A stretch of 64,000 nucleotides of DNA, from positions 57,657-121,656 of the forward strand of contig JAPPGK010000107.1 of the NCBI GenBank assembly GCA_028821405.1. Reading direction: 5' to 3'. Below the pieces are notes generated by a model. The model searched no databases. It had not been told where the DNA came from and saw only the letters and a program-made list of their open reading frames with translations. The position numbers and the translations under genes were made by a program. The DNA is from Gammaproteobacteria bacterium. GTDB taxonomy: Bacteria > Pseudomonadota > Gammaproteobacteria > Pseudomonadales > Azotimanducaceae. Shown here piece after piece: positions 1,930-18,842 of the stretch (its first letter is position 1; each line of letters starts with the position of its first letter).

Positions 1930-2721
1930 ATGTGGGGGCTCGTGGATCAACCCACTTTCGCCCGGAGGCTCGTTGCGGTCCCGTTCAGCCTGCTGGCATG
2001 TGCCGGCGCCATGGCGGCGGACGAGCGTGTCGACGAGATCCTCGATTTGCAACGCCACGCTACGGCGGCTGAGCGGAAGACCCAGGTCGAGGTAGACGAG
2101 CTGGCGGACGAGACTCAGGAAGCCGTCGGCGAGTATCGCCTGCGGTTGCACGAACTCGACGGTACACGGCGCTTCAACGACAACCTGGAACGCACGATCG
2201 CCGATCAGGATCGCGAGAAGGCGTCTCTTTCCCGGCAGATCGACGATTTCGGCGACCTAGAGCGGGGCATCGTTCCGCTGCTGATGGACATGGTGGACGA
2301 CCTAGAGCGATTCGTCGCACTTGACATGCCGTTCCGCCTGGACGAGCGGCGTGCCAATACGAAGCGGTTGCGGGAGCTTATGGACCGCGCCGACGTCACC
2401 ATCGCGGAGAAGTACCGACAGGTCATGGCCTCCTATCAGGACGAAGTCGCGATCGGCCGCAACATCGAGTCGTATTCCGGCGAACTCGAGATCGCGGGTG
2501 CGACTCGCACGGTGGACTTCCTCCGCGTCGGTCGGGTGCTGCTCGCCTATCAGACCCTGGACCGCGAAGAGACGGGGTATTGGGACACGAGTACGCGGCA
2601 ATGGCGCACGCTCGATAGCGGCTACCGGCGTCCGGTCACACTTGGGATACGCATTGCCCGGGGCCTCGCGCCGCCGGACATTCTCGGGCTGCCCATCGCC
2701 GCACCGCAGGAATCCGAATGA
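1930..2721 (+). CDS. DUF3450 family periplasmic protein of a TonB system
   Basis: A 263-residue exported protein. Residues 1-30 form a signal-peptide-like segment ending AGAMAA. Residues 35-150 are highly charged, predicted alpha-helical coiled coil (DEILDLQRHATAAERKTQVE region). The C-terminal part contains GYWDTSTRQW and the IRIARGLAPPD segment typical of DUF3450. DUF3450 proteins head TonB2-like operons together with a long ExbB-like protein, which is the arrangement here: the stop overlaps the next ATG by 4 bp. The molecular role of the family is not known; a periplasmic accessory to the ExbB/ExbD motor is inferred. Confidence 0.85.
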   Translation: MWGLVDQPTFARRLVAVPFSLLACAGAMAADERVDEILDLQRHATAAERKTQVEVDELADETQEAVGEYRLRLHELDGTRRFNDNLERTIADQDREKASLSRQIDDFGDLERGIVPLLMDMVDDLERFVALDMPFRLDERRANTKRLRELMDRADVTIAEKYRQVMASYQDEVAIGRNIESYSGELEIAGATRTVDFLRVGRVLLAYQTLDREETGYWDTSTRQWRTLDSGYRRPVTLGIRIARGLAPPDILGLPIAAPQESE

Positions 2722-4109
2722 CGGCCAGCAAGGCTCTCGGAAGAGCTGCGCTCCTGCTGTTGGCCGCCGGGCTTTACGCCCAGGAGGATCCCGAGCCGGC
2801 GGTACCCGCCGGTGAGCCCGACACGGTGCTGCAACTGTTGGAACTAATCCGCGTCGAGGCCGAGGAGGGTTCGCGTCTGAATCGGGCCCGAGTGGAACGT
2901 TTCCGCGAGGCCAGGGACGAACGGCAACGCATGCTCGAAGCCGTGACCCGTGAGTTGGAGGCGGAAAAGCGTCGCAGCGCGGACTTGAACCGGCGCTACG
3001 AGCAGAACGAAACGGATCTGGCCGACCTTGCGGAGCGACTGCGAGTCCGAATCGGCAACTTCGGCGAACTGTTCGGCGTAGTGCGTGACGTGGCGGGCGA
3101 CACCGTTGGCGAAGTGCTCGCTTCGCTGGTGTCCGCGCAGCACCCGGACCGTGTCGACATGGCCCGGGCGGTGGCGCAGGCGGAAGAGTTGCCGAGTTTG
3201 GAGGATCTTCGCGGCCTGCAATTGATGATGCTCGAGGAGATGGCGCAGTCCGGACAGGTCGTTCGGTTTACCGCGGAAGTCACCGACCCGTCGGGCCGAA
3301 AGACGCTTGGCGAGGTCATCAGAATAGGCGCCTTCAATCTCGTTCACGACGGAAGGTTCCTGACCTTCGATCCCGATTCGGGCGCGATCCAAACACTACC
3401 GCGCCAGCCGGCGGGACGCTTTCTCTCGATGGCCGAAGACTTGGAAGATGCTGCCGCGGATACGGTGGGCATGGCGATCGACCCGACCCGGGGACGGCTT
3501 CTCGAGATGCTGACCCACGCGCCTGATCTTCCCGAGCGTATCCGGCAGGGCGGCTACGTGGGCTACACGATCATCGGCATGGGCGTCGTCGGGTTGTTCC
3601 TTGCCCTGTGGCGTCTCGTCGTACTGCAGAGCGCAGACCGCCGCGTTCGCGCCCAATTGAGAAGTCCGACGCCGAGCGGGGACAACCCCTTGGGTCGTAT
3701 CCTCGGCGTGTACGAGGAACACCGTGCCGGAAACCTCGAGGCGCTGGCGCTCAAACTCGACGAAGCGATCATGCGCGAAGCGCCGGTCCTCGAACGCTAT
3801 CAGGGGATTCTCAAGGTCTTCGCGGCCGTCGCGCCGCTCTTGGGTTTGCTCGGCACGGTGGTCGGCATGATCATCACCTTCCAGCAATTGACGCTGTTCG
3901 GCACCGGCGATCCCAAGCTGATGGCCGGCGGCATATCCCAGGCCCTGATGACCACGGTGCTGGGCTTGGTGGTCGCCATCCCGTTGGTGCTGTTGCACAG
4001 CGTCGTTTCCAGTGCGAGCCACCGACTCGTGGAAGTACTGGAGGAGCAGAGCGCAGGTTTGATCGCGCGCCGGGCGGAGGATGCGCCGGGCGATGGACAA
4101 CGCGGTTAG
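2718..4109 (+). CDS. MotA/TolQ/ExbB proton channel family protein, long periplasmic N-terminus (TtpC-like)
   Basis: 463 residues, about twice the size of a standard ExbB. A signal peptide (about 1-21, LLLLAAGLYA) precedes a charged coiled-coil region (about 40-110) and a periplasmic domain. The C-terminal ~200 residues carry the ExbB core: a membrane helix near 276-300 (GYTIIGMGVVGLFLALW), then a paired-helix region with FAAVAPLLGLLGTVVGMI and GGISQALMTTVLGLVVAIP. This is the layout of TtpC, the fourth protein of TonB2 systems in Vibrio and Shewanella. It would form part of the proton-driven motor that energises TonB. It overlaps the DUF3450 gene by 4 bp and the next gene by up to 29 bp. Confidence 0.88.
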   Translation: MTASKALGRAALLLLAAGLYAQEDPEPAVPAGEPDTVLQLLELIRVEAEEGSRLNRARVERFREARDERQRMLEAVTRELEAEKRRSADLNRRYEQNETDLADLAERLRVRIGNFGELFGVVRDVAGDTVGEVLASLVSAQHPDRVDMARAVAQAEELPSLEDLRGLQLMMLEEMAQSGQVVRFTAEVTDPSGRKTLGEVIRIGAFNLVHDGRFLTFDPDSGAIQTLPRQPAGRFLSMAEDLEDAAADTVGMAIDPTRGRLLEMLTHAPDLPERIRQGGYVGYTIIGMGVVGLFLALWRLVVLQSADRRVRAQLRSPTPSGDNPLGRILGVYEEHRAGNLEALALKLDEAIMREAPVLERYQGILKVFAAVAPLLGLLGTVVGMIITFQQLTLFGTGDPKLMAGGISQALMTTVLGLVVAIPLVLLHSVVSSASHRLVEVLEEQSAGLIARRAEDAPGDGQRG

Positions 4110-4665
4110 CGACGGTTCGACGATGACCCTTTTCTACGACGCCTGGATCACGCTGCGGGGTTTTTTCGAACTGGGCGGTCCCGTCCTGTACGCGATATTC
4201 GCAGTAACCGTGGTCATGTGGTCGCTGATCGTGGAGCGGCTGTGGTATTTCTCGCGCGTTCTTCCACAGGAAATGCACAGCGCCCGGCTCATTTGGTCAA
4301 CCGGCCCCTGCGACGGATCCTGGTTTGCGAGCAGCGTCCGGCGCCTCATCCTCTCCGAAGTGGGTCTGAACGCGGAGCGCAATCTACGGTTCATTCAAAC
4401 GCTCATGCAGATCCTTCCGCTCCTGGGACTGCTCGGCACCGTTTGGGGGATGGTTCAGGTCTTCGAGACGCTGACGGCGTTCGGCACCGGGAATGCCGGT
4501 TTGATGGCCAGTGGAGTCTCCCAGGCGACGATACCCACCATGGCCGGCTTGGTGGCCGCTCTCTCGGGCCTGTATTTCTCGGTTTGGCTGAAGCAGCGCG
4601 CGCAACGCAAAATGGAGGAGCTTGAAGACGGACTCCGAATGCAGTTCGAGGCCGACCTGGGGTGA
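4081..4665 (+). CDS. exbB: ExbB-family proton channel subunit
   Basis: A standard-size MotA/TolQ/ExbB protein, 194 residues from the first ATG. The start is uncertain: ATGs at 4081, 4093 and 4123 are all possible, and the first hydrophobic helix (GGPVLYAIFAVTVVMWSLIV) would be intact from any of them. The conserved core is present: ILPLLGLLGTVWGMVQVFETL followed by GVSQATIPTMAGLVAALSGL. It assembles with ExbD in the inner membrane to convert proton flow into movement of TonB. It overlaps the preceding long ExbB paralogue, and the ExbD gene follows 3 bp after its stop. Confidence 0.92.
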   Translation: MRRAMDNAVSDGSTMTLFYDAWITLRGFFELGGPVLYAIFAVTVVMWSLIVERLWYFSRVLPQEMHSARLIWSTGPCDGSWFASSVRRLILSEVGLNAERNLRFIQTLMQILPLLGLLGTVWGMVQVFETLTAFGTGNAGLMASGVSQATIPTMAGLVAALSGLYFSVWLKQRAQRKMEELEDGLRMQFEADLG

Positions 4666-4668
4666 ACG

Positions 4669-5079
4669 ATGATTGAGCGCAAGCGCCGCAAGCGGTCGGC
4701 TCAAACAGCCGAGATCAACGTGACACCGCTGCTCGACATCGTGTTCATCATGCTGATCTTCTTCATCGTGACGACGTCGTTCCGCAAGGAACTGGGTGTG
4801 GACCTCGACCGGCCCTCCAACGCCCCGGTCAAGGAGCAGAAGCGTTCCGAGGTGATCGCCGTTCGCATCGACGCTGCCGGTCAGATCTTCGTCGAGGATC
4901 GTCTTGTCCACGCGGGGGCGATCCGGGCGAATATCGTTTCCGGTCTGGCCAGCAAACCCGACGCGACCGTGGTGGTCATCGCGGACCGGGCGACGGACTC
5001 CGGCCTCATGGTGAGAGTCATCGACCAGGCCCGGGTCGCGGGTGCCGGCAAGGTATCCGTTGCGGCATCCACGCGGTAG
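4669..5079 (+). CDS. exbD: ExbD-family biopolymer transport protein, first copy
   Basis: A 136-residue ExbD/TolR protein. The N-terminus is cytoplasmic and basic, then comes the signature EINVTPLLDIVFIMLIFFIV, a single membrane helix carrying the essential aspartate (about residue 23) of the proton path. The rest is a periplasmic ExbD domain ending with VRVIDQARVAGAGKVSVA. Its partner is the ExbB encoded just upstream. A second ExbD gene follows after 21 bp. Confidence 0.93.
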   Translation: MIERKRRKRSAQTAEINVTPLLDIVFIMLIFFIVTTSFRKELGVDLDRPSNAPVKEQKRSEVIAVRIDAAGQIFVEDRLVHAGAIRANIVSGLASKPDATVVVIADRATDSGLMVRVIDQARVAGAGKVSVAASTR

Positions 5080-5100: not shown

Positions 5101-5514
5101 ATGCGGCAGATTACCAGGCGAAGACCCGACGAAGAGTGGGAAATAAACATCACGCCCATGTTGGACATCGTGTTCATCATGCTCATTTTCTTCATCGTCA
5201 CGACTTCCTTCGTCCGGGAGCCGGGCATCGATCCCGTCCGTCCCCTCGCCCAGACCGCGGCAACCAAGGAGAGGGCGAATATCCTGATCGCCGTGTCCAG
5301 CGCCGACCAGGTTTGGATGAACAATAGGTCCGTCGCGCTTCACGGCATACGGCAACTGGTCGAAGCGGCGAGGGCGGAGAACCCCTTGAGCGGCGTCGTC
5401 ATCGTGGCGGATCAGACAGCTTCCACGGGTTTGGTCCTGGATTTGATGGACAACGTGCGCGCCGCCGGCGTGACGTCGATCGCGCTGGCTGCCGAAGGCG
5501 TCGACTCGCTGTGA
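5101..5514 (+). CDS. exbD: ExbD-family biopolymer transport protein, second copy
   Basis: A 137-residue ExbD/TolR protein with the same membrane motif as the first copy (INITPMLDIVFIMLIFFIVT; essential Asp at about residue 22) but a clearly diverged periplasmic domain ending MDNVRAAGVTSIALAAEG. Two adjacent ExbD genes suggest a heteromeric ExbD pair or specialisation for two ExbB-like partners, which is inference. The stop overlaps the GTG start of tonB by 4 bp. Confidence 0.93.
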   Translation: MRQITRRRPDEEWEINITPMLDIVFIMLIFFIVTTSFVREPGIDPVRPLAQTAATKERANILIAVSSADQVWMNNRSVALHGIRQLVEAARAENPLSGVVIVADQTASTGLVLDLMDNVRAAGVTSIALAAEGVDSL

Positions 5515-7456: not shown

Positions 7457-7671
7457 CTGAGCCGACGGCGGCATATCAGGTGACTTCGCCGAGTCGATGG
7501 CCAGTCGCTCTGACCGCAAGACGGGGAGATTTCCTACTCGAATTGCAGACTCGGCCCACTGTTTGCCGTCCTTTCGGGCAGTCAGACTGCACGATTCGTC
7601 AACACGAGGTCCACGAAGTGGGGTGGTTGGGCACGGTGTTGTCGTCGGCGACGCCCCGACGTCAAGACCAT

Positions 7672-8109
7672 GTGTCGATATGGAGCGTGACCTCACGGGA
7701 TGCAAAGACCTTCTTCTGCGTCGCGGGAACGCTGTGGGTTGCTGCACTCGCCTTCATCGTCCATAAGTCGGTGGCAGACTCGCCGGTGCCAGCAGCAGCC
7801 GGGGCGCGAGGCATCGGCGACTTCATGCTCGCGGTGCTGGCGGACTTCGGCAACGTGGGGATAGCGATTGGAATCCTCTCGATGGTGGTGGCCCCTCTGG
7901 CGAACGCAACAGGAGTGGTATTGATGTCGTTGTATCAAGCGATGGTTAATCGACTGGTGATCCCCGTTATCGAAGCTCACAAGGCGGAGGGGCGGGAGGA
8001 AGTCATGGAAGAGTGGCGAGCTTGGAATAAGCGCCGCTTGGCCGCCGAACGCGAGGGTCGGCAATTCGACGAGTCGCCGCCGGGCGAAAGCGTCGACGCT
8101 CTAAGCTGA
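7672..8109 (+). CDS. Hypothetical small membrane protein
   Basis: Not recognised. The frame is open from 7480, but the first ~64 residues look non-coding, so GTG 7672 (145 residues) is a more plausible start; neither has a convincing ribosome site. Two hydrophobic stretches are visible, about residues 13-33 (TFFCVAGTLWVAALAFIV) and 63-90 (GIAIGILSMVVAPLANATG), followed by a charged, probably cytoplasmic tail (EVMEEWRAWNKRRLAAEREG). It sits 3' of the TonB operon at the edge of the accessory island. The 215 bases before it (7457-7671) show nothing clear. Confidence 0.5.
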   Translation: MSIWSVTSRDAKTFFCVAGTLWVAALAFIVHKSVADSPVPAAAGARGIGDFMLAVLADFGNVGIAIGILSMVVAPLANATGVVLMSLYQAMVNRLVIPVIEAHKAEGREEVMEEWRAWNKRRLAAEREGRQFDESPPGESVDALS

Positions 8110-8198: not shown

Positions 8199-8915
8199 CT
8201 ACGCCGGACTCCCAGAAAGGCTGGCGACAACGCCGAAGTGATCCGACAGCTTCCGCTCCCCGTGGGTGTTGCTGACGACTCCGAGCGCTTCGACTACCAG
8301 ATCAGAACTGATGGCAACGTGGTCGATGGTCCTGCGTCCGGCAAGACCAAGGGCAGGGGTAGCGAGCGTCAGGTGGGGCGGAATCGCTTGCTGAAGCGCT
8401 GATCGGAGGCGTTGCCCGGTGGGACGCGCACCGCCGATCCGTTGATTGAAGTCGCCCATGAGGACGAGGCGTTGCTTGGGAGCATTCTTGAGAATGCCTG
8501 CAAGTCCTGCCAGATAGTCCTCGTGGTCTTGCCATCGCCTGCGTTTGTTGTCGAATCTCGCTCCCGTTCTCGAGCCCGACCACGGGATGCACACGGCGAT
8601 GACGTTCACCTTGCCGAGGGACGTCAGCGTCGTTCCCGACACGAACCGTCCCGGCGGCATCGACTCATCGCCGAGGTCGTCTATCTCCTCCCAAGGTTGG
8701 CGTGACCAAAGCAGTACTTTCCGTCGTCCCGCCTTGATCGGGTAGCCGTAGTCGGATCTTGATGAGATTGCATGTCCCCCTGAAACGAATCCGACGTACG
8801 CTTCGGTAAGGCAGACGATCTCGGGTTCCCGGTGCCCGATTCGGCTCAGGATTTCGGGAGCCCTCATCGATCTCAGTGTTGCCCATTCGAGATTCCAGTT
8901 GACCACCGTTAACAT
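8199..8915 (-). CDS. Endonuclease/exonuclease/phosphatase-fold protein
   Basis: 238 residues from ATG 8915; a longer frame reaches 9146 but overlaps the divergent helicase gene, so the shorter start is chosen. Metal-dependent EEP motifs are present in order: VVNWNLEW at the N-terminus (catalytic Asn), IVCLTEAY (metal-binding Glu), LMGDFNQRIG (Asp and Asn), RRTIDHVAIS and LSDHFGV (Asp-His). The EEP fold covers nucleases and phosphodiesterases/phosphatases; substrate cannot be told from sequence. Only 54 bp separate its start from the divergent helicase gene, suggesting a shared regulatory region and possibly a shared function in the accessory island. Confidence 0.82.
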   Translation of the reverse strand: MLTVVNWNLEWATLRSMRAPEILSRIGHREPEIVCLTEAYVGFVSGGHAISSRSDYGYPIKAGRRKVLLWSRQPWEEIDDLGDESMPPGRFVSGTTLTSLGKVNVIAVCIPWSGSRTGARFDNKRRRWQDHEDYLAGLAGILKNAPKQRLVLMGDFNQRIGGARPTGQRLRSALQQAIPPHLTLATPALGLAGRRTIDHVAISSDLVVEALGVVSNTHGERKLSDHFGVVASLSGSPA

Positions 8916-8969
8916 GGTTCTGTCCGAATTGAAGACCGTGTGGCGGCCGAGATTGGGGAAGGGTAATGG

Positions 8970-11900
8970 ATGTCTCGTGACGAGAGGGCGCCTCTCCTCG
9001 GTTCTGTGGGGCGCAAGACCACGGTTGCTCAGCTGGCCCGCCGGTTGGACGTCAGTCCGCAGGACGTCTCGAAGGCGGCTCACCGAGTCCTGAAGCTCCC
9101 GGCGGGCAGCGCACGCGATGCGCAGTACAAGCTCACGGCCCATCAATGTACGCAGATCGAGCGCTCCTTGAGGGGCGACCCGCTCGAGTTGCGTGACGCA
9201 GACGTGCCCGAAGACACCCCCGACCGACCTTTCGATGCAGACCCGCTGCTGATGCCGCCGCCAATGGTCCCGGATACGAAAGCGGCCACCGGTCGCCTCG
9301 AGTTTGATCCCCTAGATCTGTGGATCCACCAGGATGTTCTCGAGAAGCTGGAGAAGTGGGACCACCTCAGGAAGTCCGCAGGCGCCGTCGTACAGCGCCT
9401 AGCTGCCCACGGGCGGACATCGGTCGTCAAGGGATGCAGCGGTGCAAACCGAGGCTGGCGTCGTTCGCCGCTGGGTGGCAATGCCGGGATGCAGTTCTAC
9501 CTTTGGTGGACCGTCCACGGCAACCGGCATGTGAACGGTGTCGACGGGCTTCGTCCTTCGGACATCGTGGTCCGGGACATCCGGCATCACGACGACCACG
9601 ATCCGCTCCTTGCCGGCGATCGCGGCGACTACCTGCACAACCCGTCTCCACCAGAGGTCGATGAGGAGATCGGCAAACCTTGGACTGCGGAACAGCTTGA
9701 CTTCGTCAACGACGAACATCCCGTCCGGTTGGTCCTCGGACAACCGGGATCGGGGAAGACGACGGCCCTTTGGAAGGCAATCGAAGCGCGGGACCACCAC
9801 CGGGTTCTCTACCTCACCTGGTCGAGGGAACTGACAGAGTATGCCGATCAGCACTTCCGGGCGTTCGCGCCGAAGTATGTCGATGTGGACGTCTACGACT
9901 TCGTGACCTTCCTCGCGGAGATGTGCGACACCGATTTCGAACGCCGATCCGTGGCGGAGAGCCGGGCGATGTTTCGGGAGGCCCTCGGAAAGACGGCGTT
10001 GGGACCCGCGGAGTTGGGACCGTGGCGGAACTGCGAGGACGCGCTGTTCGCGGAAGTGCGCGCCGAACTGTTCGGGGCCGTTGTACCTGGCGAATCAGAC
10101 GCCGTGCGCAAGGGGGGACTCATTCGACTGACGGACGCCGCCTATCGCCGGCGCCGCCGGGGAGCCATTGGCGCCAAGGCGGTGGCTGCCGTGCTCAAGG
10201 TCGCCAAGGCGCTGAGACCCGAGGTGGTCGAGGGCGTCTTTCCGGAGCTTCTCGCCGCCACGGCAACGCTCGACCGGTTCCGCGACGGCCCCGTGCGGGA
10301 AGGATTTGCCTTGTACGGCCGAGTCGTCGTCGACGAGGCCCAGGACCTGACCCTGCTTGAGACATCGGTAGTCGTAGAACACTGCCATGAGATTGCACGC
10401 GAGACTGGTTGGGCCCCTTGGTTGGTGTTGGCCGGCGACGACGGACAGACGGTTCGGCCCTCGGGTTTCGACTGGGGCCCCGTCAGCGATCTGCTCGCGG
10501 ACCGGCTTCAGCCGCCGAGGAAGTTCCCGTTGGCGGAAAACCTGCGCTGTCCCACGAGAGTCGCGGACGTGGTCGATCGGGCATCTCAACGCTACGCCGA
10601 ACTCGGCAAGCCCCTGCGGCCGACGAAGCAGCGGCGTGACGCGGGCGGTCGGGATGTCGACGCCCAGATCTTCCACGTCGCCGTGCCGCAAGACGACGCC
10701 AGTGCGCTTCTCGAGGAGTTCAAGGATTTGGAGAACGTGGCCGTCGTCTGTCCCGAGCCCGACGTTCCGGCGTGGGTTCCAGAGACGCTCCGCGATGTCG
10801 TGCTCACGCCGGCGGACGCCAAGGGACTGGAATACCAAGCGGTTTGCGTGCTCGATCCCGGCAGGTACCTGATGCGGTTGGGGGAAGCCGAGGACAAGGT
10901 GAAGGACGCCGCACGGCTCGAAGAACATATGCGCCGTACCGCCATCGACCGACTTCGCGTGGCCTTGAGCCGCCCGACGGAGACGTTGGTGTTCGTGGAT
11001 GTCGATGCGGACGACCTGACGCTCAGGCTTAGCCGCGGATTGCTCGGCGATGCCGCTCGCTACGAGCCGGAAGACCTCGTGGAGCACCTTACCGACGGCG
11101 AGACGACCGTCGAGGAACGAGTGGATCGCCGGATCGAGGAGGCCCGTGCTCTCGTTGGCGAGCGTCCGGAACGCGCATGGCTACGCGCGGACCAGGCCGT
11201 CAAGCTGCTTGGCGATCCCGATCTGCCGAATGGTGTCTCGGACGAGGAGATCCGACACCGGGCCCGAACAACGTTGCTCGCCACGGCGGCGCGCCTCCTC
11301 GTCGATGGCGTCCCAGGGGGAATCACGCGTCATGAGGTCAACAAAGCGGCCAGGTCTGAAGCCGCTGCTCTCGATCTGTCTGAGTCCGAGCGCGGGTCGG
11401 GCGGTCGGGCGACTGATCCTCGTACGGTTGGTGACGAACAAAGTCTGATTGAGACGACCGTTCCATCGTGCACACAGGCATTTGACGAGCTGCAGGCGTG
11501 GAGCGACGCGGCAGACAGGAGGGCAGCCACCCCGTTCGGTCTACTCGACGCTACGCTTGCGCTCGGCAATCAAGGCCAGTGGCTGCGGTCGGCGCTCCCG
11601 TCCGTTGCTCAGACGCTGCGAGGTGCCCTACAGGAGCAAGCTGCCAGTCCCGACACAGCAGACCAATACGCTGGAGACGTGGAGGGGTGGCTCCGGTTGA
11701 CGGGGTATCCGGGCGACGTCGCGGCGCAAGCCCGTCGTCTGCGCGTCCTCGCGGTCGAGGCGTTGATCGAGCACGATGCCGAGGCGGCCAATCGCGCGTT
11801 GAAGAAGGTCGTACCGGAAGACACTCGTCTCGTGGCACGGGTTCGCGAAGCCCAGGGCAGGTTCGATGAGGCGGCCGAGGCCTTCGAACGTGCCGAAATG

Positions 11901-12107
11901 CCCGAGGATGCGCTGCGGGCCTGGCGGATGGCCGGACGATGGGAACAGGCGATTCGGCTGGCGGAGGGAACCGAACGGGCCGATCTCGAGTGGTTGGGTG
12001 GCCTGCAACGCATGGTAGAGGAGCAACCAACCGATTTGGGCGAGCGGCTGACTCCGGGAGAACGGGAAAGACTGCAACGCGTTGTGGGGCGAGTGATCCG
12101 GCAATAG
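8970..12107 (+). CDS. SF1 (UvrD-like) helicase with unusual N-terminal domains
   Basis: 1045 residues; ATG 8970 follows a purine-rich ribosome site (GGGGAAGGG, 8955-8963). Helicase motifs are clear: Walker A GQPGSGKTT (257-265), Walker B VVVDEAQDL (452-460), AGDDGQTV (488-495), LAENLRCP (521-528), LTPADAKGLEYQAV (612-625) and RLRVALSRPTETLVF (661-675). Before the helicase, residues 17-66 resemble a small helical IF2-N-like or HTH module. Residues ~120-222 form a compact domain with KGCSGANRGWRRSPLGGN and DIVVRDIRHHDDH, somewhat like RelE-type toxins (inference). The last ~150 residues look like TPR-like helical pairs (ARVREAQGRFDEAAEAFERA). The gene lies 147 bp before a second giant helicase gene. 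A nucleic-acid defence role is likely but unproven. Confidence 0.82.
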   Translation: MSRDERAPLLGSVGRKTTVAQLARRLDVSPQDVSKAAHRVLKLPAGSARDAQYKLTAHQCTQIERSLRGDPLELRDADVPEDTPDRPFDADPLLMPPPMVPDTKAATGRLEFDPLDLWIHQDVLEKLEKWDHLRKSAGAVVQRLAAHGRTSVVKGCSGANRGWRRSPLGGNAGMQFYLWWTVHGNRHVNGVDGLRPSDIVVRDIRHHDDHDPLLAGDRGDYLHNPSPPEVDEEIGKPWTAEQLDFVNDEHPVRLVLGQPGSGKTTALWKAIEARDHHRVLYLTWSRELTEYADQHFRAFAPKYVDVDVYDFVTFLAEMCDTDFERRSVAESRAMFREALGKTALGPAELGPWRNCEDALFAEVRAELFGAVVPGESDAVRKGGLIRLTDAAYRRRRRGAIGAKAVAAVLKVAKALRPEVVEGVFPELLAATATLDRFRDGPVREGFALYGRVVVDEAQDLTLLETSVVVEHCHEIARETGWAPWLVLAGDDGQTVRPSGFDWGPVSDLLADRLQPPRKFPLAENLRCPTRVADVVDRASQRYAELGKPLRPTKQRRDAGGRDVDAQIFHVAVPQDDASALLEEFKDLENVAVVCPEPDVPAWVPETLRDVVLTPADAKGLEYQAVCVLDPGRYLMRLGEAEDKVKDAARLEEHMRRTAIDRLRVALSRPTETLVFVDVDADDLTLRLSRGLLGDAARYEPEDLVEHLTDGETTVEERVDRRIEEARALVGERPERAWLRADQAVKLLGDPDLPNGVSDEEIRHRARTTLLATAARLLVDGVPGGITRHEVNKAARSEAAALDLSESERGSGGRATDPRTVGDEQSLIETTVPSCTQAFDELQAWSDAADRRAATPFGLLDATLALGNQGQWLRSALPSVAQTLRGALQEQAASPDTADQYAGDVEGWLRLTGYPGDVAAQARRLRVLAVEALIEHDAEAANRALKKVVPEDTRLVARVREAQGRFDEAAEAFERAEMPEDALRAWRMAGRWEQAIRLAEGTERADLEWLGGLQRMVEEQPTDLGERLTPGERERLQRVVGRVIRQ

Positions 12108-12254
12108 CCGGCGCCACAAACGACCGGGTGTGCGTTTCTGTGCGAGGAAGTCAGGCGACCGGAGACACCGACAGGATCGCTCCGGTCGTTGCAGATCGGG
12201 ATTCGGTTACGCACACTCGAACGTTTGCGGAGGGAAGGGCTGCTTTGTTAAGCC

Positions 12255-15200
12255 ATGTCAGATGCTGAGGTCATTGACCCCCAAGCCGGCGTTGATCAGC
12301 GCGTGTCGGCGCTCATCGAGGATGCGCGCAAGAAGCTTGTAGACACTGGAACACGCAACCGCCTCGTTCACGTGAACCGCTCCGGACGCGGGCGATTCCT
12401 GAACATCGTCAACGAACGGGCCGATGACGTCTTCCGCATCCTCTACGCCGAACGGCGGAAGATGCGCTTCCATGCTGCAGAAGCACCCGTCGACGACGAA
12501 GAAGACGAGGGTAGCGTCCACTTCGACGACGTTGACCTCCTCGGCTTCGACGGGGTCGACGAGATCGACGAGTCGCGGTTCACCGACCGTCTCCTCGACA
12601 CGAGCCTCGGCACGGATGCGCTGCAGAAACGGCTGCTGCAGCTGGCCAGAGATGCCCGGACGGCGGAGGAAGAACAAGGGATTAACATCCTCTTCCTCGC
12701 GCTTGGCTTTCTTGCCTGGTTCGAGGACGAGAAGTCCGAAGTGCCGCGCGAGGCACCGCTGATCCTCGTTCCCGTCGACCTGGTGCGCAATGAACGTACT
12801 TCGACATACGACATCCGCGCCCGCGAAGAGGACATCGTCACGAATCTGCCCCTCCAGTCGAGGCTGCGCGACGATTTCGGGCTGACCCTGCCCGAGATCG
12901 ACGATGGGGACGAATGGAGTCCTTCCGCCTACTTCGATGCCGTACGCGATGCCCTGATTGCCAAACCGCGCTGGCGTTTGGACGATAACGGCATCCAGCT
13001 CGGCTTCTTCTCGTTCGCGAAGCAGCTCATGCAGCGCGACCTGGAACAATCACAGTGGCCGGAAGGCGGCCTCGCCGCCGACGCGACGATCCGGGGTCTG
13101 ATGCAGGCGGGATTCGAGCCGGCAGCCAGCCCGTTCCCGGACGGGAAGAGGCTCGACAATCTGCTCCCTCCGCAGGACATCGTGCAGGTCATCGACGCGG
13201 ACGCCCCGCAGACCAAGGTCATCGAGGAGGTCCGGCGCGGAAGGAACCTGGTTGTCCAGGGGCCGCCGGGGACCGGCAAGTCCCAGACCATCACGAACGT
13301 CATCGCGGCTGCGGCGCACGACGGCAAGACCGTGCTCTTCATGGCGGAGAAGATGGCTGCTCTGGATGTGGTCCTTGGTCGGTTGCGCAACTGTGGGCTC
13401 GGCGATCTTTGTCTTGAACTCCACTCGCGGCACGCCAACAAACGGGAAGTCTTAAAGGAGATCGGTCGGACGTTGCAATCGCGCCAGGAGGAAATGCCGC
13501 CGGACATCGACGCGACGGAACTGCGGATCAAACGGGACGAACTGAACGGAATCGCCGACCTTCTCCACACGACCATCGAGAATCGGGACTACACGCCGTT
13601 CGAAGCGATGGCCGATGTTGTGGGGTTCATTGCCAGCGATCGACGACCGCCTCACCTGGAACGGGAGGGCCTGGGCGAACTTGACGTGGCACGACGTCGT
13701 CGGATCGAGCGCGACATCGCGAGTCTGGCCGAGCTGCTGGCTGCCACCGGCCCTCGCTCGCAACATCCTTTCGCTGGCTGTCGCGAGCTCGACCTGCAGC
13801 CGGTCGCGTTGCAGCGCATGGGCAACGCCTTGGCCTCGGCGATCAACGCGCTCGACGACGCATCGTCGACCAGCCGGGCGTTTGCTCGCGGTCGCTCTCA
13901 CGAACAAGAGCCGAGTACCGACGAGTGGCTTCCAAGGGCGGCGTCCGTGGCTGACCTCAGGCAAAGCGCTAGGTTTCTCGATCTAGTCGGGCAACGTCCG
14001 CAACGGGCGGCGCAGCTGATTGACGCGGTCTTCGGCAAGGAATCGGCGCGCGATGTCGCGGAGTCGCTGGAAATCGGTCGCCAATGGGCGCAGGCCAAGC
14101 ACGATGCCGAGCCAAGGTTTCGAGACCACGCGTGGGAGATACCGGCGGCACCGCTGCAGTTGGACCTTGAGCGGGGTGCGGCGCCGGGCTTGGGTTCCTT
14201 TCTTGCCAGACTCGGCGGTGCCTACCGACGGGCAAGCAAGACCCTCGCAGAGCTTGCGGTGGGCGCGTTGCCCAAGTCGGGTGCCGATCGCGTTGAACTG
14301 GCGAGACAACTGGCGGATGTGCAGCGCCGACGTCGCGAACTGGCCGACGAAGAGGGATTTCTCGCGCAACACCTGGGCGCTGCATGGCGCGGCGAACGAA
14401 CGGACTTCGAAGGCCTTCGCGATGCCGCTATCTGGCTCGCCGATGTAGAGGCTACGGACATTGCAGGTTCGACATCCGACCTCACGCGTGTGGAGTCGAC
14501 GTTCCCTCGGCCGGCGGAGACGGGACGGGCGATAGAGCAAACGGCGACGTCCGCGTTGGAGAGGGCCCGCACCGTGGTAGAACTACTGCGCCTCGATCTG
14601 ACGGACGTGGGGCTTGGCGATCATATCGATCAGGCACCGCTGTCTGCCTTGCACGACCGATTCGCGGCGATGGCGGCGAATCGAGAGCGTTACAACGAGT
14701 GGCGCCGGATCCAGCACCTCGTCGAGCAGCTAACGCGTGCCGGTCTTGGCGCGCTTGTAGCGATGCTGGACGATGGGCGGCTGGCGGCGTCGGACGCGGT
14801 GGACGAATTCGCCTACGCGGCGGCCGAAGCGCGTTGGGAATTGGCCACGGAGTCGGTACCCGATCTCGCGAGTCTCGCCGATTTGGACCGACATCAACTG
14901 GTTGCTGCGTTCGATGTCTTGGAGTCCGAGCATATTGAGAACGTCCAAGACCTGATCCGATCACGTCACCTCGCCCAGTTGCCGCTCGGCGCCGCGGGGG
15001 AGATGGGCGTCATCCGTAGCGAGATCGCCCGCAAGAGACGCCACATGCCGATCCGTCGTCTGATGGACAGGGCAGGTGTCATGGTGCAGCGCATCAAGCC
15101 CGTGTTCCTGATGAGCCCGATCTCCATCGCCCAGTTCCTGCCGCCAAGGGCGTTGCGGTTCGATTTGCTGGTGGTCGACGAGGCCAGTCAAGTACGCCCC

Positions 15201-17036
15201 GAAGACGCTTTGGGCGCGATCGCCCGGTGTGGACAGATCGTGATCGTCGGCGACCAGAAGCAGTTGCCGCCTACCTCGTTCTTTGATCGCTTGGGAGCGG
15301 ACGAACCGGTCGATGAGGAGGAAGACGCGGGGGATGGCGTTGCCCGGGCTACCGAGATGGAGAGCATCCTCACGCTGTGCGAGGCGCGGGGCATCAGCCC
15401 GCGGATGCTCAAATGGCACTACCGCTCGCGAGATCCGTCGCTGATTCGAGTATCCAACGAGGAGTTTTACGAAAACCAGCTCATCCTGCCGCCGTCGCCG
15501 CTCGAGCTCGATGATTCCTATGGTCTGTCGTTCGAACGAGTCCCGGGGGTCTATTCGACGAAGGGAAGCGGTGCCGGTCGGCCTGGCACCAACCGGATCG
15601 AGGCCGAGCACGTCGTTCAGGCGGTAGCGGTTCACGCGCGGGATTGGCCGGACATGTCGCTTGGCGTCGTAACGTTCTCCAAGGCGCAGGCGGACATGGT
15701 CACGGAACTCCTCGAACTCGAACGGCGTCAGGACGAGGTGCTCAACGACTTCCTGCGCGAAGGTCATGCTGAAGACGCCTTCGTCAAGAACATCGAGAAC
15801 GTCCAGGGCGACGAGCGGGACGTGATCTTCATCAGCGTTGGCTATGGACCGACCGAGCCGGGAGGACGGCTCGCGAACATGCGCTTCGGTCCGGTCAATG
15901 CGGAAGGGGGCGAGCGCCGCCTGAACGTCCTCTTCACCCGGGCCCGCGCCCGTTGTCGTGTCTTCGCTTCGTTCGACCCGGGGGACATGGATCTGAATCG
16001 CGCCCCCGGGAACGGCCCGAGAGTCCTGAAGCGGTTTCTCGATTTCGCGAAGACCGGCGAGGCGGCGGAGCACAGACCAACCGGGGGCGGCGCGGACAGC
16101 CCGTTCGAGGAGGACGTGGCCAATGTCATCCGCGAACTCGACTATCTTGCGGATCACCAGGTGGGCAGCGCCGGCTTCCGAATCGACTTAGGTGTCAGAC
16201 ATCCGGACGCGCCGGGCAAGTACATCCTGGCGGTCGAATGCGATGGTGCGGCGTACCACCGGGCCTTGTCGGCACGCGAGCGCGACCGCCATCGCCAGGC
16301 CGTGTTGGAGGGGCTAGGTTGGAAGTTCCATCGGATCTGGAGCACCGACTGGTTTCATCGCCGTCCCCAGGAGGGACAGCGTCTGGCACAAGCGCTCGCC
16401 AAAGCGCGGGCCGCAGTCGAGCGCACGCGAGTTCGCGGGGCCAATGAAGGCGGCCGTCGAGTGGAACCGGAGGAACCGGCATCGACTACCGAAATAGACA
16501 TCGGTGCCATAGCGCCTCCGGCGATCACGGCACCGTTGGTCTACCGCCAAGCCCACGTCTCGGTGGATACGGCGCTGGAACCTCACGAGGTGCCGCCATC
16601 GCGCCTGGCCGGCATTGTGCGGGAGATCATCGTGGTCGAAGGTCCCATTCACGTCGATCTGGTCGCACGTCGCATAGCGGAGTCGTTCGGCAAGGGCCGG
16701 ACTGGCACGCGAATCGCCGAGGCGACACGAGCGGCGTTGCGCGAGGCCGAGCGGCAAGGCGGCGGCGATTTGCTGGAGCGATACGGTTTCTGGCTGACAC
16801 AAGAGCAAAGCGAGGAGATGCCCGTACGTGACAGATCGGCGGCAGGCAGCGGGGCGGACAAAGCGCCGATGTTGCCGCCCATGGAAATCGTGGCTGCCGC
16901 CGAGTTGATCGAGCGGGAGAGCGGTCGAGTGGAGCAGGACGACCTCATCCGGGAGGTGAGCCGTCTGCTCGGGTTCAAACGGGCGGGAACCGATCTCAGG
17001 CGGGTGATCGGCGAGGCGTTGGGCGAAGGGCGTTAG
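12255..17036 (+). CDS. DUF4011-SF1 helicase-Vsr/MTES_1575-like nuclease-DUF3320 protein
   Basis: 1593 residues. Order of parts: an N-terminal DUF4011 segment (about 14-75, KKLVDTGTRNRLVHV); an SF1 Upf1-like helicase split by a ~600-residue insertion, with Walker A GPPGTGKSQT (about 336-345), Walker B VVDEASQVRPEDA (about 972-984) and motif VI ERRLNVLFTRAR (about 1220); a Vsr/restriction-like nuclease (about 1282-1366: FRIDLGV, YILAVECDGAAYH, RIWSTDWF); and a DUF3320 domain (about 1445-1515, GPIHVDLVARRIAESFGKGRTG, given in part). DUF4011-helicase-Vsr proteins have been reported as single-gene antiphage systems (called Hhe, as I recall). Its neighbour is another SF1 helicase on the same strand. 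Most likely role: defence against foreign DNA or RNA. Confidence 0.9.
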   Translation: MSDAEVIDPQAGVDQRVSALIEDARKKLVDTGTRNRLVHVNRSGRGRFLNIVNERADDVFRILYAERRKMRFHAAEAPVDDEEDEGSVHFDDVDLLGFDGVDEIDESRFTDRLLDTSLGTDALQKRLLQLARDARTAEEEQGINILFLALGFLAWFEDEKSEVPREAPLILVPVDLVRNERTSTYDIRAREEDIVTNLPLQSRLRDDFGLTLPEIDDGDEWSPSAYFDAVRDALIAKPRWRLDDNGIQLGFFSFAKQLMQRDLEQSQWPEGGLAADATIRGLMQAGFEPAASPFPDGKRLDNLLPPQDIVQVIDADAPQTKVIEEVRRGRNLVVQGPPGTGKSQTITNVIAAAAHDGKTVLFMAEKMAALDVVLGRLRNCGLGDLCLELHSRHANKREVLKEIGRTLQSRQEEMPPDIDATELRIKRDELNGIADLLHTTIENRDYTPFEAMADVVGFIASDRRPPHLEREGLGELDVARRRRIERDIASLAELLAATGPRSQHPFAGCRELDLQPVALQRMGNALASAINALDDASSTSRAFARGRSHEQEPSTDEWLPRAASVADLRQSARFLDLVGQRPQRAAQLIDAVFGKESARDVAESLEIGRQWAQAKHDAEPRFRDHAWEIPAAPLQLDLERGAAPGLGSFLARLGGAYRRASKTLAELAVGALPKSGADRVELARQLADVQRRRRELADEEGFLAQHLGAAWRGERTDFEGLRDAAIWLADVEATDIAGSTSDLTRVESTFPRPAETGRAIEQTATSALERARTVVELLRLDLTDVGLGDHIDQAPLSALHDRFAAMAANRERYNEWRRIQHLVEQLTRAGLGALVAMLDDGRLAASDAVDEFAYAAAEARWELATESVPDLASLADLDRHQLVAAFDVLESEHIENVQDLIRSRHLAQLPLGAAGEMGVIRSEIARKRRHMPIRRLMDRAGVMVQRIKPVFLMSPISIAQFLPPRALRFDLLVVDEASQVRPEDALGAIARCGQIVIVGDQKQLPPTSFFDRLGADEPVDEEEDAGDGVARATEMESILTLCEARGISPRMLKWHYRSRDPSLIRVSNEEFYENQLILPPSPLELDDSYGLSFERVPGVYSTKGSGAGRPGTNRIEAEHVVQAVAVHARDWPDMSLGVVTFSKAQADMVTELLELERRQDEVLNDFLREGHAEDAFVKNIENVQGDERDVIFISVGYGPTEPGGRLANMRFGPVNAEGGERRLNVLFTRARARCRVFASFDPGDMDLNRAPGNGPRVLKRFLDFAKTGEAAEHRPTGGGADSPFEEDVANVIRELDYLADHQVGSAGFRIDLGVRHPDAPGKYILAVECDGAAYHRALSARERDRHRQAVLEGLGWKFHRIWSTDWFHRRPQEGQRLAQALAKARAAVERTRVRGANEGGRRVEPEEPASTTEIDIGAIAPPAITAPLVYRQAHVSVDTALEPHEVPPSRLAGIVREIIVVEGPIHVDLVARRIAESFGKGRTGTRIAEATRAALREAERQGGGDLLERYGFWLTQEQSEEMPVRDRSAAGSGADKAPMLPPMEIVAAAELIERESGRVEQDDLIREVSRLLGFKRAGTDLRRVIGEALGEGR

Positions 17037-17165: not shown

Positions 17166-18773
17166 TCAAGCTGGATCGGAGTCGCGAATCGCAAGCATCC
17201 CGTCGAAGCTACTTCCCATGGGCATGCCCGGTCCGGGCAGCCGGGTTCCCTCGGAAACACCCTCGGAGACGCCCGCAGATGCTGCCGGAAACTGAGGTCG
17301 CAAGGCCGGCTCAATCACCTCGCCGTCCCGGCTGACGAATGCGAAGCCATCGTCCTCGACGGTGATGTGGAACGCGCCGTGGTGCAGCAGCCGATGATGC
17401 GCGCTGCACAGCAGCACCAGGTTCGATAGCCGCGTCTCGCCGCCGTCGATCCAGTGCTTCACATGATGCGCCTCGACATAGCGCTGATGCGGACAACCGG
17501 GGAAGCGGCAGCGGTTGTGGTCGCGCAGCTTCAAGGCGCGCAGCAGCGGGGCCGGCACGATGCGCCGCCGGCGTTCGTAGTTCAGCGCCTTGCCCTCGGC
17601 ATCCTCTATGAACTCCGTGAGGTCGGCGTCGCAGGCGATCTGCCGGGCGTCCTCCTCGTCGACGCCCCAGTCCGGCTCGACGTGGAAGCGGGCGCCGCCC
17701 TGTGCCGCCCGTTCGGCGAGTTCGTTGCGGTCGATAGTGAGCATGACCTCGTAGCGCTGGCCGGCACGCCGGTGCCGGGGACCGGGGCCGTTCGCGAGGT
17801 AGCGCTCGGCCACGTCAACTAGCGCGTCGGCATAGCGTTGTCTCGCGTTCGAGACTTCAAACACCAGCGAGGCCGGCAGATCGTCGGCCTCGGCAGGCTG
17901 GTCGTCGGCAACATCCCCGGTTGCACACTCCGTTTCTGCGGAAACGCCGCCGGAATGGTCCGCGACCCCGTCCGCAGCCGCCGCGATTTTCGCGGAACCG
18001 CTCATCTCCCGGTTCGCCACCGGTACCGGCACCGTCGGTTCGGCGAGGGGTTCGTCGTCCGCCGGTTCTGGATCCGCATCTACAGTATCGGGACCATCTC
18101 CCGCCAGCAGGGCTTCGTAGTATGCCTCCCGTTCGTCCAGCCGGGCGTCGACGACCATTTGCAGCGCCTTGATCACGAGCGCGCCCCGCTCCGCGGGCAC
18201 TTGTGCAGTGACCACGCACATGCCGTCCTCGTAGTACCAACTCAGACCCCGCCGCTGCTCGCTCGAGACCCGTTCCCTGTCGACTCTGTCGACCCGCTCG
18301 TAGGTCCGGACCAGGCTCTCCAGCTGCGCCGCGCTGCTGCGCCCGGCGATCTCCAGCAGTGTGGCTTCGGTCTCCCGCGTCGCCACCCGCGTGATGGCGC
18401 GCACCTTGGAGTAGCTCAGGACCCCGTCGCGGAACGCCGCGTCGATGCGCGGCAGCCGTGCCAGCGCCCGGCCGATGCGGATGCGTTCCCGGGCGGCACA
18501 GGGACCCAGCCCGCAGCGGTGGTCCAGCCAGTTGCCGAGGCTGCAGTAGCCGCGCTCGTCCCAGCCGCGGGAGCGGTCCATGGCGGCAACGAGCTTGACG
18601 AAGCGCCAGTCGGCGAGGTTGATGTGGGCGGCCATGTCGGTGACGGCGCGACGCAGTTCGGCGGGGTCGTCGGGGATGAAGTCGAGCTCCGGGTCTTCTT
18701 CGAGGCCGGGGTAGTCGGCATATTCGGAATCGAACTCGGCGTATTGCGCGGTTTCTTCGGAGGGTTGGAACAT
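17166..18773 (-). CDS. DUF222 / HNH endonuclease family protein (13E12-like)
   Basis: 535 residues from ATG 18773. Another in-frame ATG at 18842 falls inside the predicted -35 box, so it is rejected. Residues ~30-330 form the DUF222 helical region (GWDERGYCSLGNWLDHRCGL, SYSKVRAITRV), interrupted by an acidic low-complexity stretch around 220-320. The C-terminus carries a complete HNH nuclease: CRFPGCPHQRYVEAHHVKHW, then LSNLVLLCSAHHRLLHHG, with the paired CxxC-like and His residues. These proteins are often multicopy and their biological role is uncertain; DNA cleavage is inferred from the HNH motif. It converges with the helicase cassette (129 bp gap). Confidence 0.88.
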   Translation of the reverse strand: MFQPSEETAQYAEFDSEYADYPGLEEDPELDFIPDDPAELRRAVTDMAAHINLADWRFVKLVAAMDRSRGWDERGYCSLGNWLDHRCGLGPCAARERIRIGRALARLPRIDAAFRDGVLSYSKVRAITRVATRETEATLLEIAGRSSAAQLESLVRTYERVDRVDRERVSSEQRRGLSWYYEDGMCVVTAQVPAERGALVIKALQMVVDARLDEREAYYEALLAGDGPDTVDADPEPADDEPLAEPTVPVPVANREMSGSAKIAAAADGVADHSGGVSAETECATGDVADDQPAEADDLPASLVFEVSNARQRYADALVDVAERYLANGPGPRHRRAGQRYEVMLTIDRNELAERAAQGGARFHVEPDWGVDEEDARQIACDADLTEFIEDAEGKALNYERRRRIVPAPLLRALKLRDHNRCRFPGCPHQRYVEAHHVKHWIDGGETRLSNLVLLCSAHHRLLHHGAFHITVEDDGFAFVSRDGEVIEPALRPQFPAASAGVSEGVSEGTRLPGPGMPMGSSFDGMLAIRDSDPA

Positions 18774-18804
18774 CGTTGTGACTACCGATTCGGCAACGCG
18801 ATGA

Positions 18805-18842
18805 ATACTGGATATAATACCAGTATGACCGGCGTTTGTCAT
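18805..18842 (-). promoter_or_regulatory. Promoter with LexA-like palindromic operator
   Basis: On the minus strand a -35 ATGACA (18842-18837), 17-bp spacer and -10 TATTAT (18819-18814) match sigma-70 elements with one mismatch each. The -10 lies in the centre of a perfect inverted repeat, ATACTGG-N8-CCAGTAT (18805-18826). The layout resembles the gammaproteobacterial SOS box (CTG-N10-CAG with an AT-rich core) except that the fourth base of each half-site is G/C rather than T/A. It lies 32 bp upstream of the DUF222-HNH start and would repress that gene. The match is by eye; the repressor is not identified. Confidence 0.6.

What the first reader, a model, noticed from the sequence alone, without database searches (positions are those of the whole stretch)
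8199..17036. Two giant SF1 helicases plus an EEP-fold enzyme: candidate multi-gene defence cassette
A 1045-residue UvrD-like helicase and a 1593-residue DUF4011-helicase-nuclease-DUF3320 protein sit in tandem, with an EEP-fold enzyme divergent from the first by 54 bp and a DUF222-HNH nuclease just beyond. The DUF4011-helicase-Vsr architecture alone has been reported as antiphage (Hhe, from memory). I do not know a described system that pairs it with this first helicase, so the pair may be a two-gene or three-gene system.
Basis: partly seen in the sequence, partly recalled or inferred. Interest (0 to 1): 0.75.

Follow-up and report, generated by a model that had tools for sequence, protein, structure and literature searches.

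The report
Two unrelated solo helicase genes, adjacent
Two big DNA-motor genes that looked like one antivirus cassette appear to be separate single genes that sit side by side only in one small group of bacteria; one resembles a known antivirus protein, and the other belongs to an unnamed helicase family with a toxin-like front part.

Summary
The genes are real and placed as described: EEP-fold gene (8199-8915, -), 1045-aa UvrD-like helicase 'HEL' (8970-12107, +), 1593-aa DUF4011-helicase-nuclease-DUF3320 protein 'S37' (12255-17036, +), DUF222-HNH gene (17166-18842, -). The multi-gene system is not supported. None of 53 HEL loci from outside the genus shows S37 or EEP in the DNA held; none of 11 loci with full-length-type S37 relatives shows HEL. 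In an acidobacterial family that carries HEL patchily (37 of 150 genomes), S37-like hits occur in 8 of 32 HEL-positive and 6 of 20 HEL-negative genomes, never on HEL's contig. Within the window's genus the two are neighbours, but decay separately. S37 is a near-full-length PADLOC PDC-S37 protein and a below-cut-off relative of NCBIfam ProA and Hhe: a solo antiphage candidate of known kind. HEL is the unusual part: an unnamed, patchy solo family whose N-terminal domain is predicted to fold like YoeB/RelE toxins (weak Foldseek scores), fused to an SF1A helicase and an alpha-solenoid. A helicase-triggered toxin is plausible but untested.

The parts
8199..8915 (-). EEP-fold (Exo_endo_phos) gene, ATG at 8915, 54 bp from HEL and divergent; judged an independent passenger
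   Evidence: Pfam PF03372 44.7 bits; start and gap; relatives in 8 of 200 family genomes, 0 of 5 fetched loci near HEL or S37
8970..12107 (+). HEL: 1045-aa solo helicase family with a predicted YoeB/RelE-like N-terminal domain
9009..9179 (+). HEL residues about 14-70: helix-turn-helix-like N-terminal extension; 0 of the 40 homologues in A2 was aligned over it as a conserved region (their match starts near residue 94-127 in most)
   Evidence: weak MarR_2 match 0.0086; helices in the model; match starts
9297..9689 (+). HEL residues 110-240: predicted YoeB/RelE (BECR)-fold domain
   Evidence: model with mean pLDDT 79.2; the five best Foldseek matches are YoeB or YoeB/ParE chains, best probability 0.98, E 0.066
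9681..11039 (+). HEL residues about 238-690: SF1A (UvrD-like) helicase core
   Evidence: Foldseek to HelD, UvrD, FBH1; motif residues
11067..12104 (+). HEL residues about 700-1045: alpha-helical solenoid (TPR/IFT-like)
   Evidence: helices in the model; profile matches to IFT172 8.8e-11 and IFT144 1.4e-8
12175..12254 (+). 5' leader that moves with S37: the edge of homology in two relatives where HEL is not upstream
   Evidence: homology to G150 starts at 12175 and to G094 at 12182; alignment of the edges
12255..17036 (+). S37: DUF4011-helicase-nuclease-DUF3320 protein, PADLOC PDC-S37, ProA/Hhe relative
   Evidence: motifs GPPGTGKS 336, DEASQ 975, nuclease FRIDL 1308 and VECDG 1327
16104..16397 (+). 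S37 residues 1284-1381: REase_MTES_1575 nuclease domain
   Evidence: Pfam PF18741 118.2 bits
17166..18842 (-). DUF222-HNH gene, member of a family repeated in the genus; not part of a system

Best explanation
The region is a chance or short-lived juxtaposition, in one genus, of independently mobile solo genes in a variable site between an ExbB/ExbD/TonB operon and a carboxyltransferase gene. S37 is a one-protein antiphage candidate of the PDC-S37/ProA/Hhe kind: most likely its helicase core moves along DNA and its PD-(D/E)XK-type nuclease cuts it (inferred from domains). HEL is a separate one-protein accessory family: predicted YoeB/RelE-like domain, SF1A helicase, helical solenoid. Most likely the motor recognises a DNA or RNA structure and controls the N-terminal domain (inferred, untested). 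Shown here by computation: domain content, lack of linkage outside the genus, independent decay inside it. EEP and HNH are passengers.
For: HEL relatives: 54 loci, of which one (L087) is G138 of the same genus; 0 of the other 53 has S37, EEP or HNH in the DNA held; 24 of 52 with a called HEL ORF have 5 kb or more on both sides. No fixed neighbour of HEL: the most frequent neighbour cluster appears in 12 of 55 loci at varying positions. S37 relatives: 0 of 8 plasmid loci (of 419 records, the 8 top-ranked), 0 of 2 class relatives and 0 of 1 genus relative G131 has HEL; a further 27 class loci with about 1.5 kb flanks, mostly remoter matches, also show none. Co-occurrence: 8 of 32 HEL-positive versus 6 of 20 HEL-negative genomes, always different contigs; positive control G000 found. 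Genus: S37 intact with HEL internally deleted (G165), absent from the locus (G150), an N-terminal scrap on the other side (G094), or absent (G131); HEL near complete but frameshifted with S37 a 59-bp scrap (G138); scraps of both (G111). The S37 5' edge is nearly the same in G150 and G094 (12175, 12182), so S37 moves with its own leader.
Against: Inside the genus, each of the five genomes with a HEL gene or scrap of it in this search (G000, G165, G138, G111, G094) also has S37 or a scrap of it in the same locus, so the two did travel together there; a lineage-specific partnership cannot be excluded. Many loci have short flanks (38 of 52 have 1 kb or more on both sides), and different contigs in fragmented genomes do not prove distance. 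The gap of 147 bp without a recognised terminator or promoter would allow co-transcription. HEL pairwise dN/dS of 0.23-0.31 indicates past constraint on HEL in these species.
Confidence: 0.85

Rival explanations
1. HEL and S37 are a true two-gene defence operon in this genus only: HEL a sensor, S37 the effector.
For: Same strand, 147 bp apart, no terminator-like site between; adjacency or scraps of both in five genomes of the genus.
Against: S37 is intact in four relatives without an intact HEL (G165, G150, G094, G131); HEL is near complete in G138 with S37 gone; no linkage elsewhere. The five genomes are close relatives, so they count as few events.
Confidence: 0.1
2. A three-gene system EEP-HEL-S37: the EEP enzyme is divergent but shares a control region.
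For: 54-bp divergent gap; 48 N-terminal EEP residues (81% identical) remain beside HEL in G165, so EEP was next to HEL in their ancestor.
Against: An intact EEP at this site was found in G000 only; EEP relatives in 5 fetched loci lie apart from HEL and S37; no EEP near HEL in 53 outside loci.
Confidence: 0.03
3. HEL is not a defence or toxin gene but an accessory DNA-repair or replication-restart helicase whose N-terminal domain binds nucleic acid without catalysis.
For: HEL neighbours are not enriched in known defence genes: each of 17 PADLOC families matched one of 93 immediate neighbours at 1e-10, mostly methylases and an RtcR-type regulator (no control set was run). Nearest folds are HelD, UvrD and FBH1. 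The match to E. coli YoeB by profile is not significant.
Against: Patchy presence (37 of 150) with decayed copies, for example one with six in-frame stops, is unlike a repair housekeeping gene; charged residues outside the seed patterns used to find the family (H120, K154, R165, H210) are also identical in 41 of 41, which suggests an active site.
Confidence: 0.35

Closest known systems
PADLOC PDC-S37 (single-gene phage defence candidate; 'single-gene' is my reading of the name, no paper found)
   Same: Near-full-length match, residues 15-1589 to 4-1530 of 1550, 1715.7 bits
   Different: Nothing notable in S37; PADLOC gives no description and my literature search for the name found 0 papers
NCBIfam NF058533 anti-phage protein ProA
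   Same: Co-linear match of residues 15-1576 to model positions 354-1903, 1311 bits
   Different: Below the cut-off of 1500; the first 353 positions of the model are not matched
Hhe (NF042953 / PADLOC Hhe)
   Same: DUF4011, SF1 helicase and a Vsr-like nuclease; 922 bits in NCBIfam, 639 bits in PADLOC
   Different: Far below the NCBIfam cut-off of 2000; match in 4 and 2 separate stretches
YoeB/RelE/ParE (BECR-fold) toxins
   Same: HEL residues 110-240: predicted strand-helix-helix-three-strand fold; five best structure matches are YoeB-type chains
   Different: No significant sequence match; no Foldseek match with E at or below 0.001; fused to a helicase, no antitoxin gene recognised beside it
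UvrD, HelD and FBH1 SF1A helicases
   Same: Helicase core of HEL
   Different: Extra N-terminal domain and C-terminal solenoid
Gabija GajB
   Same: UvrD-type helicase; weak PADLOC match to HEL, 17.5 bits
   Different: Match covers 46 residues around the P-loop only; no GajA-type partner
Hachiman HamAB
   Same: Works-like analogy only: a sensor helicase that restrains an effector (start of abstract seen in the listing)
   Different: Two proteins, other helicase and effector families; no homology tested

Membership tests
PDC-S37 (PADLOC) | Match to the family model over nearly its whole length | tested here: met
   1715.7 bits, model positions 4-1530 of 1550
ProA (NCBIfam NF058533) | Score at or above the curated cut-off of 1500 bits | tested here: not met
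   1311 bits, model positions 354-1903 of 1903
Hhe (NCBIfam NF042953) | Score at or above the curated cut-off of 2000 bits | tested here: not met
   922.4 bits
PDC-S37 / ProA / Hhe kind | DUF4011, SF1 helicase, PD-(D/E)XK-type nuclease, with motifs present | tested here: met
   Pfam domains; motif strings
PDC-S37 / ProA / Hhe kind | Protection against phage | not testable with these tools
   needs plating
Two-gene system HEL plus S37 | Conserved neighbourhood in independent lineages | tested here: not met
   0 of 53 HEL loci; 0 of 11 S37 loci; 8 of 32 versus 6 of 20 genomes
BECR (YoeB/RelE) toxin | BECR fold | tested here: met
   topology of a pLDDT 79 model and best matches all YoeB-type, but E values of 0.066 or worse
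BECR (YoeB/RelE) toxin | Sequence profile match | tested here: not met
   no Pfam toxin family of this fold for HEL at E up to 10; hhalign to YoeB 0.7%
BECR (YoeB/RelE) toxin | RNA cleavage or gyrase inhibition; neutralising antitoxin | not testable with these tools
   needs biochemistry; no antitoxin gene identified
SF1A helicase | Walker A, Walker B and arginine motifs | tested here: met
   G260, G262, K263, T264 in 40 of 41 (one gap); D455, E456, Q458, D459, R663, R668 in 41 of 41

The most novel reading that the evidence does not exclude
HEL is the first recognised example of a family of one-protein immune or stress effectors in which a YoeB/RelE-type RNase domain is built onto an SF1A helicase: the motor senses an abnormal nucleic-acid intermediate and releases a toxin that stops the cell. 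The family is spread over Acidobacteria, Verrucomicrobia (Chthoniobacter), Chloroflexi (Dehalococcoidia), Desulfobulbaceae, Rhodothermus plasmids and this gammaproteobacterial genus.
Probability: 0.3. Interest if true: 0.65.

Novelty: new variant of a known kind. Interest (0 to 1): 0.35.

Why it matters
It removes a false two-gene system before anyone clones it as a pair, and shows that in this genus S37 can stand alone. It also points to an unnamed helicase family with a predicted toxin-like domain. If that domain is an active RNase under control of the motor, it would be a compact example of a helicase acting as the sensor of a toxin.

Tried and rejected
Multi-gene cassette: rejected as a conserved system. 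Phage origin of HEL: no tblastn match in the phage records, none confirmed in viral contigs (23 pattern matches, 0 confirmed), no useful match of the N-terminal domain in BFVD; a PHROG helicase family matches 53 residues around the P-loop only. Housekeeping status of HEL: rejected as a simple reading because it is patchy. Defence-island embedding of HEL elsewhere: not supported, but I ran no control set of distant genes, although I drew one up. Profile comparison of the N-terminal domain with E. coli YoeB: not significant, though the aligned stretch lies in helix 2 of both. Literature: searches gave no paper on PDC-S37 or on ProA as an antiphage protein, and none that I recognised as describing a RelE-UvrD fusion; the library holds open-licence PubMed Central papers only. 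Papers: PMC11980606 (abstract, outline, section 20, and a word search: 0 occurrences of helicase or UvrD; it says many multidomain BECR proteins were left out, so absence there is weak evidence); PMC10250203 (passages; its DUF4011 gene is a flanking core gene of a P. aeruginosa hotspot); PMC3710099 (passages); the rest were seen in listings only. Caveat on the family alignment: the loci were found by two short patterns inside the N-terminal domain (M[QH]FYLWW, R[DT]IRHHD[DE]), so invariance at 202, 205-208 and partly 179-180 is inflated by the way they were found, and relatives that lack this domain would have been missed; A2 uses 40 of the 53 outside loci.

Full report
What is there. The four genes are present as listed. 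S37 (12255-17036) has DUF4011, AAA_11, AAA_12, REase_MTES_1575 and DUF3320 above the Pfam cut-offs, helicase motif strings GPPGTGKS, DEASQ, GDQKQLPP and YRSR and nuclease strings FRIDL and VECDG. It matches PADLOC PDC-S37 with 1715.7 bits over nearly the whole model, and NCBIfam ProA (1311, cut-off 1500) and Hhe (922, cut-off 2000) below their cut-offs. The EEP gene most likely starts at 8915, 54 bp from HEL. The window flanks are ordinary: DUF3450, two ExbB-type genes, two ExbD genes and a TonB gene on one side, a carboxyltransferase and a nitronate monooxygenase-type gene on the other.

What HEL is. HEL has no Pfam family above cut-off and no NCBIfam family at E up to 1. An alignment of HEL with 40 relatives (A2) gave a model of mean pLDDT 79.2 whose best structure matches are HelD, UvrD and FBH1; the C-terminal part is helical and its profile matches IFT172 and IFT144. 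I guessed a RelE-like domain near residues 115-215 from the letters before any fold search; that guess is recalled pattern knowledge. A separate model of residues 110-240 (pLDDT 79.2, pTM 0.74) has the order strand, two helices, three strands, and its five best Foldseek matches in the PDB are YoeB or YoeB/ParE chains (probability 0.63-0.98, TM normalised to target 0.55-0.71), but the best E value is 0.066 and none reaches 0.001. The sequence comparison with E. coli YoeB is not significant. I call the fold likely and the activity unknown.

Are they a system? Outside the genus. A scan of one genome per species found 54 loci with HEL relatives (135 pattern matches); one is G138's own contig. Of the other 53, none has S37, EEP or HNH in the DNA held at E 1e-6. 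Flanks differ: of 52 loci with a called HEL ORF, 24 have 5 kb or more on both sides, 38 have 1 kb or more on both sides, 51 have 1 kb or more on at least one. The genes around HEL are not conserved: the most frequent neighbour cluster is in 12 of 55 loci and at varying distance. Two Rhodothermus marinus plasmids carry a 36%-identical relative beside a TIGR02710 CARF gene, with no DUF4011 gene annotated within 10 kb. From the other side, the 8 top-ranked plasmid loci of S37 (of 419 records with any match, 10 covering 80% of the query) have no HEL within 8 kb, nor do two class relatives and the 64%-identical G131 copy.

Co-occurrence. In the family of one acidobacterial carrier, 37 of 150 genomes have a HEL match at E 0.001, some of them fragments or decayed. 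I took 32 of the 37, leaving out five with short or weak matches, and 20 of the 113 without, plus G000 as control: S37-like matches, mostly distant, occur in 8 of 32 and 6 of 20, and in each of the eight the match lies on another contig than HEL. An earlier search of seven HEL genomes gave 0 of 7. These genomes are fragmented, so another contig is not proof of distance.

Inside the genus. Of 16 genomes, S37 or something like it is found in 7. G165 has S37 intact and HEL with a stop in the N-terminal part and an internal deletion of about residues 98-298, which takes the Walker A motif and the N-terminal domain; 48 EEP residues remain. G150 has S37 intact next to the gene that precedes EEP here, without HEL or EEP; a 22-bit HEL-like match elsewhere in G150 I count as another helicase. 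G094 has S37 intact (35 residues masked) beside an amidohydrolase gene and an N-terminal scrap of HEL on the 3' side. G131 has a 64% S37 elsewhere, no HEL. Against a simple story, G138 keeps HEL almost whole but frameshifted while S37 is a 59-bp scrap, and G111 has scraps of both side by side. So the two genes have been neighbours in this genus for some time and decay independently. The S37 unit has nearly the same 5' edge, about 75-80 bases before its start codon, in G150 and G094, which suggests it moves with its own leader. Pairwise dN/dS is 0.15-0.18 for S37, 0.23-0.31 for HEL pieces and 0.05-0.07 for the neighbouring carboxyltransferase; HEL values include decaying copies.

Passengers. 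The EEP family occurs in 8 of 200 genomes of the bacterial family, and 5 fetched loci show neither HEL nor S37. DUF222-HNH genes recur on several contigs in several genomes of the genus.

Mechanism. For S37 I commit to a one-protein DNA-targeting helicase-nuclease (domains shown, action inferred). For HEL I lean to a motor that controls an N-terminal toxin-like domain (about 0.3 for the full claim), with an accessory repair helicase as the main rival. The neighbour scan does not place HEL in defence islands: each of 17 PADLOC families matched one of 93 immediate neighbours, with no control set.

Verdict. Observation confirmed, system not supported, S37 a new member of a known kind, HEL an unnamed family that deserves a test of its own.

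Noticed in passing
window 7480-8109; L025 8143-8625; L030 12265-12903 and 14104-14697: A 209-aa gene without a Pfam family above cut-off recurs at the edges of this site in relatives, before S37, after HEL, or twice, as if it marks the insertion site.
   Followed up: partly
L038 8219-13015 and L039 8219-13015 (Rhodothermus marinus plasmids): A HEL relative lies next to and divergent from a TIGR02710-family CARF gene in both plasmids; in one the HEL gene is annotated as two pieces.
   Followed up: no
L040 7569-10799 (Picosynechococcus plasmid): A distant HEL relative (24-27% identity) is annotated as two consecutive genes, in keeping with decay of this family elsewhere.
   Followed up: no
window 4669-5079 and 5101-5514: Two ExbD genes in tandem and two MotA_ExbB-type genes (2718-4109, 4081-4665) before a TonB gene; a stretch of 105 bases in the ExbD pair is 74% identical.
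   Followed up: no
window 17166-18842: The DUF222-HNH gene belongs to a family with several copies per genome in this genus.
   Followed up: partly
L180 15080-18008 and L187 3401-6562: S37 relatives on plasmids of Paraburkholderia sabiae and Hymenobacter lie near genes annotated DUF4297 anti-phage-associated plus DUF87, and SIR2, respectively.
   Followed up: no
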